Positions 33,804 to 36,240 of a stretch of DNA of 64,000 bases are shown here, piece by piece. Origin of the DNA: Nodularia sp. NIES-3585 (GTDB lineage: Bacteria > Cyanobacteriota > Cyanobacteriia > Cyanobacteriales > Nostocaceae); NCBI RefSeq assembly GCF_002218065.1, contig NZ_BDUB01000001.1:2383031-2447030 (forward strand), given 5' to 3'. The translations under genes and the position numbers were made by a program. Positions within the stretch are counted from its first letter, which is position 1. Each line of letters opens with the position of its first letter. The notes under the pieces were generated by a model. It did not search any database. It was given only the letters and a program-made list of their open reading frames with translations, and had not been told where the DNA came from.

Positions 33804-36240
33804 ATGGGTGAAGCAAAGCGTCGTGTGCGATTCGTTGTTTAGTGAATCACGGTAACCAGTCCGTACATAACTAAACCAGTCCGACAGCAGATTACTGTCA
33901 TTAAGGGCTGAACTCTCGGTCAGATGCAAGTGCAAGTCTTGCCATTCAGACTCAGAATTGACTCCTTATCTGCCCACACTGACCAGACTCGGTTTCTGGA
34001 GGGTGAAGCTGGGAACAGGGCGCAATCAGACGACCGTTGCGGGTTGACACTGGCGCTAACAGGGAGTTCCTATGATGAAACAGAGCCTAAAAAAACGACT
34101 TATTTAGCAGGCAGGGCGCAACGCAAAATCCCTGACCTCACTGGAGTTCATTCCCGCCGTACACGCGTCGAGTAACGGCAAAGAGTCTAGGGAATCCAGT
34201 AGTTGGATTGGCTACATCTAACGGAACAATCAATCTCTCCGAGGGAACGAATAAAAACTAATTGTGGGTCTTGAGACAGTCGAATCTCAGGTAGACCAGA
34301 CGAGCGGAGGAATCCCCACAGTTAGGGTAGGACAGTCCGTAATTGGACTGAGGTGTTCAGAAAATACAAACTCCAGAAGAGAAAATGATTAGACACAGTT
34401 ACAAAACTAGTGAATCTTGGAAAGCCTTACCGTGGAAGAAATTCCGCCGAAATCTTTTCCGCCTTCAAAAGCGCGTATTTAAAGCGGTTCAAGTTGGAGA
34501 CAAGCGGAAAGCGCGGTTTCTCCAAAAGCTTATTCTAAAATCAACCTCGGCTCGATTTCTGGCAATAAGACAAGTATCTCAGCTAAATGCTGGTAAAAAG
34601 ACGGCTGGTATTGATGGGAAAAAATCGCTCTCATTTGAAGAACGCTTCAACCTTGAAGAATTACTGAAAATGAATAGTGGAAATTGGAAGCATCAAGGAC
34701 TACGGGAAATCCCAATCCCTAAGAAGGACGGGACTCCCAGAATGCTTAAGATACCCACCATCGCGGATAGAGCTTGGCAATGCCTCGCAAAATATGCACT
34801 CGAACCAGCACACGAAGCCACTTTCCACGCCAGGAGTTATGGGTTCAGAACTGGGCGCTCCGCCCATGATGCACAAAAGTACATCTTCCTAAACCTTAAC
34901 TCCAAAGCTAACGGAATAAATAAGCGAGTAATTGAACTCGATATTGAAAAGTGCTTCGATAGGATTAATCACTCAGCAATAATGGACGAACTCATTGCCC
35001 CTAAAGGCTTAAAACTCGGAATATTCCGATCTCTCAAGGCGGGAGTCAACCCAGAATTCCCCGAACAGGGAACACCTCAAGGGGGAGTGGTCAGCCCACT
35101 ATTAGCAAACATCGCACTCAACGGGATTGAGAGTATACACAGGTACCATGAGAATCAAGGACAGAGAATCACTGGTAAAACCTCAGCCAGTGATATCACC
35201 GAGCCATCAGTCCGATACGCGGATGACATGGTTATTATACTTCGACCCGAAGATGATGTAACAGAGATACTTGAAAGAATCAGCGAGTTTCTCCGCCAAC
35301 GCGGAATGAATGTAAGCCAAAAGAAAACCAAAGTTACCGCCGCGACAGATGGGTTTGATTTTCTCGGCTGGCACTTTAAAATCCAGAAAAACGGAAAGTT
35401 CAGAAGTATCCCCTCAGTGGACAACTTCAAAGCGTTCCGTAAGAAAGTAAAACACATCGTCAACAACTCGAATTATGGTGCTACCACAAAGGCTGATAAA
35501 TTAGCCTCGGTAGTTAGAGGTTGGAGAAATTACCATAAGTTCTGCAAGATGGACGGCTCCAGGAATTCCCTGTACCACATCGAAACAAGAGCTTACAAGG
35601 TATTTAACAAGGAAACCAAACAAAACCGCTATTCTAGCAAGAAATTACTAGACAAGGCATTTCCAGCAGTTCCCTACTCCGAAAATAAACACGTCTCAGT
35701 CAAAGGAACTAAATCCCCCTATGACGGAGATACAACCTACTGGAGCGAACGTAAAAGTAAGCTCTACGACGGCGAAACCTCTAAAGCTCTTAAGAAGCAA
35801 AACCATAGATGTGCTTCCTGTGGTCTGAAATTTATCGATGAGGAACGGGTACACCTGCATCACATCGACGGAAATCACGCCAACGGTCAGAAAAATAATC
35901 TAGAAGCAATTCATGAGAGTTGTCACGATTACAAACACATGAGCAAAAGCGCAAGCTAAGAACATCGGGAGCCGTGTACACGGAAACGGGTACGCACGGA
36001 TCTAACTGAGAGGTGCGGGGAATAATATCCCCCATCGACTCAAACAAAACTACACTGGGAGATAACTACGGTCAAGATACTCGCATCTTGCCTTGGGTTC
36101 CCATCACCAAAACCCAATCTGAACAGTTTATGCAGTTGACTACTCGTGGAACCTGGTTTTGTATTGGTGCTATCGTCGTCGCGTGGATAACTATCCGTTT
36201 TATTGGTCCGGCTTTCGGCTGGTGGGAAGTAGTATATTAG
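33804..36240 (+). CDS. DUF2839 small membrane protein, split by a group II intron
   Basis: Exon 1 is 33804-33824 (ATG to the second Arg of MGEAKRR); exon 2 is 36046-36240 (KTTLGDNYGQDTRILPW... to GWWEVVY). Joined, they give 71 residues, MGEAKRRKTTLG..., which matches the conserved start and the single hydrophobic helix (GTWFCIGAIVVAWITIRFIG) of cyanobacterial DUF2839 proteins. Without splicing, translation from the ATG stops after a few codons inside the intron. The junction is phase 0. Function of the family is unknown to me; one membrane span near the C-terminus. Expression depends on intron removal. Confidence 0.82.
34385..35959 (+). CDS. ltrA: Group II intron reverse transcriptase/maturase with HNH endonuclease
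   Basis: 524 residues, inside domain IV of the intron. The N-terminal reverse-transcriptase region includes RT0-like ARFLAIRQVSQLNAGKKTAG, IPIPKKDGTPRMLKIPTI, ELDIEKCFDRINH, GTPQGGVVSPLLANI and the active-site YADD (278-281). The maturase X domain follows (VVRGWRNYHKFCKMDGS). The C-terminus is an HNH endonuclease with a zinc-type C476-x2-C479 and HLHHIDGNHANGQKNNLEAIHESCH. All core motifs are present, so splicing help and retrohoming are both plausible. Bacterial, cyanobacterial-type IEP. Confidence 0.95.
   Translation: MIRHSYKTSESWKALPWKKFRRNLFRLQKRVFKAVQVGDKRKARFLQKLILKSTSARFLAIRQVSQLNAGKKTAGIDGKKSLSFEERFNLEELLKMNSGNWKHQGLREIPIPKKDGTPRMLKIPTIADRAWQCLAKYALEPAHEATFHARSYGFRTGRSAHDAQKYIFLNLNSKANGINKRVIELDIEKCFDRINHSAIMDELIAPKGLKLGIFRSLKAGVNPEFPEQGTPQGGVVSPLLANIALNGIESIHRYHENQGQRITGKTSASDITEPSVRYADDMVIILRPEDDVTEILERISEFLRQRGMNVSQKKTKVTAATDGFDFLGWHFKIQKNGKFRSIPSVDNFKAFRKKVKHIVNNSNYGATTKADKLASVVRGWRNYHKFCKMDGSRNSLYHIETRAYKVFNKETKQNRYSSKKLLDKAFPAVPYSENKHVSVKGTKSPYDGDTTYWSERKSKLYDGETSKALKKQNHRCASCGLKFIDEERVHLHHIDGNHANGQKNNLEAIHESCHDYKHMSKSAS
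35969..36002 (+). other. Group II intron domain V
   Basis: 34 nt, GAGCCGTGTACACG-GAAA-CGGGTACGCACGGATC. It keeps the AGC triad and GNRA loop of the catalytic hairpin. Confidence 0.9.
36007..36042 (+). other. Group II intron domain VI with branch-point A
   Basis: The stems TGAG/CTCA, GGTG/CATC and GGGG/CCCC leave A36038 bulged on the 3' side, seven bases from the splice site, the standard lariat position. Confidence 0.8.

What the first reader, a model, noticed from the sequence alone, without database searches (positions are those of the whole stretch)
33804..36240. Intact group II intron interrupts a DUF2839 gene after codon 7
Seen: ATGGGTGAAGCAAAGCGTCGT followed by GTGCGATTCG at 33825, and a 34-nt domain V plus a domain VI with bulged A36038 seven bases from ...CTCAAAC. 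Joining at these sites restores MGEAKRR|KTTLGDNYGQ, the expected start of DUF2839, in phase 0. Most bacterial group II introns sit between genes or in mobile DNA; one inside a conserved housekeeping-type gene makes its expression depend on splicing. Exon end GTCGT has complementary ACGAC in two intron loops (34030-34034, 34095-34099).
Basis: partly seen in the sequence, partly recalled or inferred. Interest (0 to 1): 0.75.

Follow-up and report, generated by a model that had tools for sequence, protein, structure and literature searches.

The report
Mobile intron homing into DUF2839 gene
A mobile self-splicing type of RNA element sits inside the genome's only copy of a small gene found in most cyanobacteria, at a spot where related elements have landed more than once in other species, so the gene should work only if its message is spliced.

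Summary
A 2,221-nt group II intron (33825-36045), with an open 524-aa reverse transcriptase/maturase/HNH ORF and good domains V and VI, splits DUF2839 after codon 7. Three same-genus species have the exact empty site. The genome has no other DUF2839 match.

The same junction is occupied in 9 of 217 genomes of the family (4 genera); each of the nine has one DUF2839 match. Introns here moved between genera: G000 and G533 introns are 95.4% identical, their host flanks 78.4%; G516 and G533 flanks are 94.0% identical, their introns 72.9%. Two intron lineages use the site, and an IEP tree rejects a single origin (AU p 0.019). The site encodes MGEAKRR, almost invariant in 113 uninterrupted loci.

Comparative pairing puts EBS1 at 34165-34170 and EBS2 at 34102-34107.

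In G001 (by scaffold length N. spumigena CCY9414) the copy has YGDH for YADD and N505H in HNH with an open ORF, as in a splicing-only intron; its genome paper calls an RT:HNH gene, probably this one, 'free-standing'. Splicing is inferred; no RNA was examined.

The parts
33804..33824 (+). DUF2839 exon 1 (codons 1-7, MGEAKRR)
   Evidence: Sequence; the heptapeptide is the same in 109 of 113 uninterrupted loci, 4 having S at position 4.
33813..33818 (+). IBS2 (GCAAAG)
   Evidence: Exon partner of EBS2 by comparative scan.
33819..33824 (+). IBS1 (CGTCGT)
   Evidence: 5 of 6 pairs with EBS1 in the window copy.
33825..36045 (+). group II intron, 2221 nt
   Evidence: Exact empty sites in G002-G004. 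Seven complete introns at the same site in other genomes and one split by a contig end, G480.
34102..34107 (+). EBS2 register (ATTTAG here; ATTTGC in G001, G430, G516, G529, G480)
   Evidence: Best of about 540 scanned positions for IBS2 in ten relatives (51 of 60, next 38). Only 3 of 6 pairs in the window copy, which has one extra A.
34165..34170 (+). EBS1 (GCGTCG) in a terminal loop
   Evidence: Best of about 540 scanned positions for IBS1 in ten relatives (52 of 60, next 35); partner-shuffle control 0 of 20000.
34208..34208 (+). candidate EBS3 nucleotide (U), opposite exon 2 first base A
   Evidence: Complementary to the +1 exon base in 8 of 9 introns; the best of about 540 columns scanned, next best 7 of 9, so suggestive only.
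34385..35959 (+). intron-encoded protein (524 aa): RVT_N, RVT_1, GIIM maturase domain, HNH
   Evidence: Pfam matches; nearest solved relative 6me0_C, a maturase reverse transcriptase, E 5.4e-68. NCBIfam group_II_RT_mat scores 287.7, just under its cut-off of 300.
35216..35227 (+). RT active-site motif YADD (residues 278-281); YGDH in G001
35810..35938 (+). HNH endonuclease domain (residues 476-518); N505 is H in G001
35967..36045 (+). domains V and VI
   Evidence: Rfam RF00029, 50.5 bits; fold.
36038..36038 (+). predicted branch-point A
   Evidence: Unpaired in the domain VI fold, 7 nt from the 3' splice site.
36046..36240 (+). DUF2839 exon 2 (codons 8-71 and stop)
   Evidence: PF10999 positions 8-67; dN/dS 0.08-0.15 between G000 and its four congeners.

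Best explanation
This is a mobile, maturase-encoding group II intron (protein closest to the TeI4h-type cyanobacterial maturase) resident at a homing site in the only DUF2839 gene. Shown by sequence: exact borders, the empty site in relatives, an open RT/maturase/HNH ORF, guide elements EBS1 and EBS2 identified by covariation with exons, the same junction occupied in nine genomes of four genera by two intron lineages, and intron divergence that disagrees with host divergence. Inferred: the transcript is spliced with the help of the encoded maturase to restore MGEAKRR|KTTLG..., and the intron ribonucleoprotein retrohomes into empty DUF2839 alleles of other cyanobacteria after horizontal transfer. 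Targeting almost invariant codons keeps the site available, and splicing spares the host gene. In G001 the copy appears to have lost mobility functions while keeping the maturase.
For: Borders and empty sites. Domains V/VI; 5' ribozyme half with 151 consensus pairs, 81 of them with a compensatory change in at least one of 10 introns (no shuffled control for this count). IEP domains and nearest solved relative. EBS1 68 of 72 and EBS2 59 of 72 pairs over 12 introns, 0 of 20000 partner shuffles reaching either; both are top positions in a scan of the 5' half. Nine of 217 family genomes carry ATG GGN GAR ... RR|GTGYG, reversed-pattern control 0; all nine show MGEAKRR followed by a related intron, with DUF2839 exon 2 after it (in G480 on another contig). 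One PF10999 match per genome in all nine. Intron vs host identity: G000-G533 0.954 vs 0.784; G001-G510 0.955 vs 0.768; G000-G001 0.932 vs 0.902; G516-G533 0.729 vs 0.940. Forced monophyly of the eight complete site introns rejected, AU p 0.019; G480 is 90% identical to G516/G529 and 71-73% to the other lineage over its first 1014 nt. EBS1 of site introns pairs 5-6 of 6 with this site in 9 of 9, EBS1 of introns from other sites 0-4 in 9 of 9; EBS2 3-5 against 0-3. Exon 2 dN/dS 0.100 between G000 and G001. IEP ORF open in 8 of 8 complete site copies.
Against: No RNA was examined, so splicing and mobility are inferred. EBS1-IBS1 has one T.T mismatch in 7 of the 9 site copies and the window's EBS2 pairs only 3 of 6 in strict register; relaxed pairing could mean lower efficiency. 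Most of the family lacks the occupied junction, so the intron is not needed. DUF2839 function and essentiality are unknown. The two AU p-values (0.014; 0.019) are moderate. The single-sequence fold of the 5' half is not better than shuffles (z -0.88). For G001 the open frame alone is weak evidence of maturase selection: with 30 random substitutions 24% of simulated ORFs stay open, and its 10 nonsynonymous to 13 synonymous private changes are not clearly different from sister G510's 7 to 16.
Confidence: 0.88

Rival explanations
1. The intron was inherited vertically from an old ancestor at this site and lost precisely in most descendants; there was no homing between genera.
For: Occupied by similar introns in two species of the window's genus and five of another genus. 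Overall IEP synonymous divergence between G000 and G001 (0.220) is like that of six neighbouring genes (0.210-0.345).
Against: G000-G533 introns 95.4% identical, host 78.4%; G516-G533 introns 72.9%, host 94.0%. G000's IEP groups with G430, G533 and G534 (support 83) while G001's pairs with G510 (support 100). Residues 1-331 have dS 0.115 (0.07-0.17), below every neighbouring gene's point estimate, though the intervals overlap for four of six; residues 332-524 have dS 0.482 (0.32-0.73).
Confidence: 0.04
2. The insertion is a dead end: the transcript is not spliced, and DUF2839 is lost or made in altered form from a GTG inside domain VI (36013, 75-aa ORF).
For: The reading frame from GTG 36013 into exon 2 is open.
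Against: It would drop MGEAKRR, conserved in 113 of 113 loci apart from A4S in 4. Exon 2 keeps low dN/dS in interrupted species (0.08-0.15 for G000 against congeners). Both exons are intact in the eight complete cases. The IEP ORF is open in 8 of 8.
Confidence: 0.06
3. The intron has a regulatory role: splicing efficiency sets DUF2839 expression, and this has kept the intron.
For: It is held at one site in several genera, and the RT and HNH motifs are degenerate in G001 while the ORF is kept.
Against: 208 of 217 family genomes do not show the occupied junction; a patchy, horizontally moving distribution is what a selfish homing element predicts.
Confidence: 0.08

Closest known systems
TeI4h and relatives, Thermosynechococcus elongatus group IIB introns (PMC2882425, passages seen)
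   Same: Related RT/X/D/En protein (6me0_C, E 5.4e-68; that this entry is TeI4h is recalled); sits in a putatively essential single-copy gene (tRNA-Ile) with good EBS/IBS pairing; native YAGD motif parallels the degenerate YGDH in G001.
   Different: Host is a tRNA gene in one genome; here a protein gene, at a site occupied in nine genomes by two lineages.
Trichodesmium erythraeum introns, including the Tery_4732 twintron (PMC4649490, passages seen)
   Same: Cyanobacterial group II introns interrupting a small conserved gene of unknown function; splicing shown in vivo there.
   Different: Nested twintron; no recurrent cross-genus occupation is described in the passages I saw.
O.i.I2 in radC of Oceanobacillus iheyensis (PMC4424553, passages seen)
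   Same: Bacterial intron in a conserved gene with an RT-degenerate but open IEP; that 2015 review calls it the only known bacterial example of a degenerate IEP.
   Different: ML class; the IEP here is closest to a TeI4h-type protein.
Group II introns in a bacterial heat-shock operon and in Geobacillus recA (titles seen in the PMC4424553 reference list; papers not opened)
   Same: Housekeeping protein genes interrupted by group II introns.
   Different: Different lineages and sites; not compared here.

Membership tests
Group II intron | Domain V catalytic hairpin and domain VI with bulged branch A | tested here: met
   RF00029 50.5 bits over model 1-77 of 77; A36038 unpaired.
Group II intron | 5' GUGYG and 3' AY ends | tested here: met
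   GTGCG...AAAC in the window; many related copies end ACC, so the penultimate A is not a rule in this family.
Group II intron | Exon recognition by EBS1/EBS2 | tested here: met
   68 of 72 and 59 of 72 pairs over 12 introns, 0 of 20000 shuffles; the window's own EBS2 gives 3 of 6.
Group II intron | IEP with RT and maturase (X) domains in domain IV | tested here: met
   RVT_1 E 3e-36, GIIM E 9.4e-8; the ORF lies between the 5' ribozyme half and domain V.
Group II intron | Splicing in vivo | not testable with these tools
   No RNA data available.
IIB / chloroplast-like (TeI4h-type) class | IEP relationship to the T. elongatus-type protein | tested here: met
   Best solved relative 6me0_C (5.4e-68), next 7uim_D (3.9e-38); no formal class tree was built, and the link of 6me0 to TeI4h is recalled.
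IIB / chloroplast-like (TeI4h-type) class | EBS3-IBS3 pairing | tested here: inconclusive
   U34208 complementary to +1 in 8 of 9 introns, best of about 540 columns.
Site-specific homing element | Same junction occupied in distinct hosts, with intron divergence unlike host divergence | tested here: met
   9 of 217 genomes; identity matrix and AU test.
Site-specific homing element | Retrohoming activity | not testable with these tools
   Needs a mobility assay.

The most novel reading that the evidence does not exclude
Codon 7 of DUF2839 is a standing harbour for group II introns in this cyanobacterial family: two separate lineages (six and three of the nine genomes) carry nearly the same guide (EBS1 mostly RCGTCG, EBS2 mostly ATTTGC) for an almost invariant codon stretch, jump between genera into it, and in N. 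spumigena one has shed RT and endonuclease function while its maturase keeps the host gene alive, a step from mobile element to obligatory splicing intron.
Probability: 0.5. Interest if true: 0.72.

Novelty: new member of a known kind. Interest (0 to 1): 0.6.

Why it matters
Bacterial group II introns are described as mostly outside housekeeping genes (PMC4424553, passages; PMC6003770, start of abstract in a listing). Here a gene present in nearly all sampled cyanobacteria is a repeated landing site, with active-looking and degenerate copies at the same junction and empty alleles in congeners. That makes the passage from mobile retroelement to splicing-only intron directly testable with natural allele pairs, and annotations of these loci (a DUF2839 with a wrong start, a 'free-standing' RT) may need correction.

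Tried and rejected
Rejected: my early worry that G001's 3' end (ACC) is a defect; many family members end so. Replaced: a first reading of G000/G001 as one vertically inherited intron with a mosaic 3' part; the later tree puts G001's copy with G510 and G000's with G430/G533/G534. Corrected on checking: I had taken G480 for a third lineage; it is 90% identical to G516/G529 over 940 aligned positions, so two lineages, not three. Not useful: single-sequence fold of the 5' half (z -0.88); promoter/terminator scan (7 promoter-like sites against a shuffle mean of 3.7, 3 terminator-like against 2.9, none of the three on the + strand); Rfam with relaxed threshold gave no further family in the intron. 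Four of the 13 genomes hit by the 19-mer in the family (G565, G582, G585, G591) and the hits in G674, G617, G697, G632 and G059 are not at DUF2839; G702 has a related intron at another site and an uninterrupted DUF2839. The order draw (11 of 388) added no DUF2839 case beyond the family list. One search lists only part of its matches, so it cannot give the fraction interrupted. Literature: nine searches over open-licence papers; no listing named an intron in DUF2839, and the one paper holding the word DUF2839 was not opened. Papers opened, by passages only: PMC4424553, PMC4649490, PMC8919778, PMC3610870, PMC4094844, PMC2882425.

Full report
OBSERVATION. Exon 1 is 33804-33824, the intron 33825-36045, exon 2 36046-36240. 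The spliced protein matches DUF2839 PF10999 from position 1 to 67; the ORF downstream of the intron alone matches 8-67. Rfam reports one group II match in the window, domains V-VI at 35967-36045, and the fold leaves A36038 unpaired 7 nt from the 3' end. The encoded 524-aa protein has RVT_N, RVT_1, GIIM and HNH matches and is closest among solved structures to 6me0_C.

HOST GENE. The genome (5.77 Mb, 100% complete by the tool's estimate) has one PF10999 match. In 60 genomes (own included) 59 have the gene; 57 of those 59 matches start at position 1 and two, G000 and G001, at position 8; G023 had none. In a class-wide draw 378 of 388 genomes have the family. Exon 1 peptide MGEAKRR is identical in 109 of 113 uninterrupted loci and differs by A4S in 4 (the loci are not all independent, G002 is in twice, and 80 came from a search that used MGEAKRRK as one of six patterns). 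Empty sites in G002, G003 and G004 show the exact joint.

GUIDES. I aligned the 5' halves of related introns at different sites and asked which intron hexamer follows the exon ends. Twelve introns (not all independent) give 68 of 72 EBS1-IBS1 pairs and 59 of 72 EBS2-IBS2 pairs; shuffled partners give means of 32.8 and 31.0, and 0 of 20000 shuffles reach the observed values. I had chosen the registers by eye, so I scanned about 540 positions: 34165 and 34102 are the top starts, well clear of the next (52 vs 35; 51 vs 38 of 60 in the ten relatives).

A RECURRENT HOMING SITE. A junction pattern (codons 5-7 plus intron start) hit 13 of 217 family genomes, of which nine are at DUF2839; a stricter pattern from ATG hit the same nine, reversed-pattern control 0: G000, G001, G430, G480, G510, G516, G529, G533 and G534, in 4 genera. 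All nine are introns of this family after MGEAKRR; eight are complete with exon 2, and G480 is split by a contig end, its 3' end and exon 2 lying on another contig. Each of the nine genomes has exactly one PF10999 match. An order-wide draw hit 11 of 388 with no further DUF2839 case, and a class-wide draw 1 of 388, G000 itself. These are lower bounds, since introns with other 5' ends are missed.

HORIZONTAL MOVEMENT. Intron identity and host identity (700 nt upstream plus exon 2) disagree strongly: G000-G533 0.954 vs 0.784, G001-G510 0.955 vs 0.768, G516-G533 0.729 vs 0.940. In the IEP tree six site introns form one group, G516 and G529 fall among introns from other sites, and forcing all eight together is rejected (AU p 0.019). 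G480, not in that tree, is 90% identical to G516 and G529 over its first 1014 nt, so there are two lineages at the site. Within the window's genus, G000 and G001 as sisters are rejected on a 5,189-column local alignment (AU p 0.014), and their introns have different nearest relatives, so they were probably acquired separately. EBS1 of site introns pairs 5-6 of 6 with the site in 9 of 9; in nine introns from other sites the score is 0-4; EBS2 gives 3-5 against 0-3. Seven of nine site copies, from both lineages, share the same T.T mismatch, which fits guide exchange or shared descent better than independent convergence; this is unexplained.

A DEGENERATE COPY. G001's contig length, 5,462,271, equals that of the N. 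spumigena CCY9414 scaffold, so I take it to be that strain. Its IEP has YGDH for YADD and H for N505. Of the 28 other loci compared with the window's IEP (some are the same copy), 23 cover the YADD position: 22 read YADD and L158 reads YAND. Against its sister G510, G001 has 10 private nonsynonymous and 13 synonymous changes (neutral expectation about 3.5 to 1; G510 has 7 and 16); seven of the ten lie at residues 202-281, two in HNH, one at 416 (only sites where the other five agree were counted). The frame is open over 535 codons, which alone is weak evidence: 24% of simulated ORFs stay open after 30 random changes. It is the only full-length match to this IEP in G001, the other two being short. 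The genome paper reports a 'free-standing' RT:HNH gene, nsp10420, and one intron in total; I infer from type and gene numbering that nsp10420 is this IEP. Loss of RT function is likely, not proven; TeI4h with YAGD had mobility 2.5x10^-5 % at 37 C, rising to 3.4% with YADD.

OTHER INSERTIONS. A relative in G031 splits an NAD kinase gene in sense: the pieces match NF002731 at 2-173 and 175-304. Two others sit in TnpB-like genes.

VERDICT. A known kind of element in an unusual and repeatedly used place. Splicing and retrohoming remain inferred.

Noticed in passing
L149:1-3407 (G031:C274): A related intron (76.5% identical) splits an NAD(+) kinase gene in sense orientation; pieces match NF002731 at 2-173 and 175-304.
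   Followed up: partly
L115:2165-4383 (G001): The 2013 N. spumigena CCY9414 genome paper counts one intron and a 'free-standing' RT:HNH gene nsp10420, probably the IEP of this overlooked group II intron.
   Followed up: partly
L158 (G022:C1:5528808-5532100): Another copy of the family has YAND in place of YADD with no stop in the matched frame.
   Followed up: no
L159 (G037:C35): Intron whose 3' flank reads like the start of another group II RT, suggesting a twintron.
   Followed up: no
L205 (G430): Site intron is 2357 nt, with about 137 extra bases near intron position 405.
   Followed up: no
34165-34170 and site copies in L205-L211: Seven of nine site introns from both lineages share the same EBS1 mismatch against IBS1; the hexamer ACGTCG would pair fully (wobble allowed) with CGACGT or CGGCGT, Arg-Arg codons found in 0 and 2 of 113 loci.
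   Followed up: partly
L174 (G000:C1:3405500-3411500): Two further open RT frames (601 and 613 codons, 40-42% identical to this IEP) lie close together elsewhere in the same genome.
   Followed up: no
L212 (G702:C218): A related intron sits after AAACGCCGT at a place other than DUF2839, while that genome's DUF2839 match is uninterrupted.
   Followed up: partly
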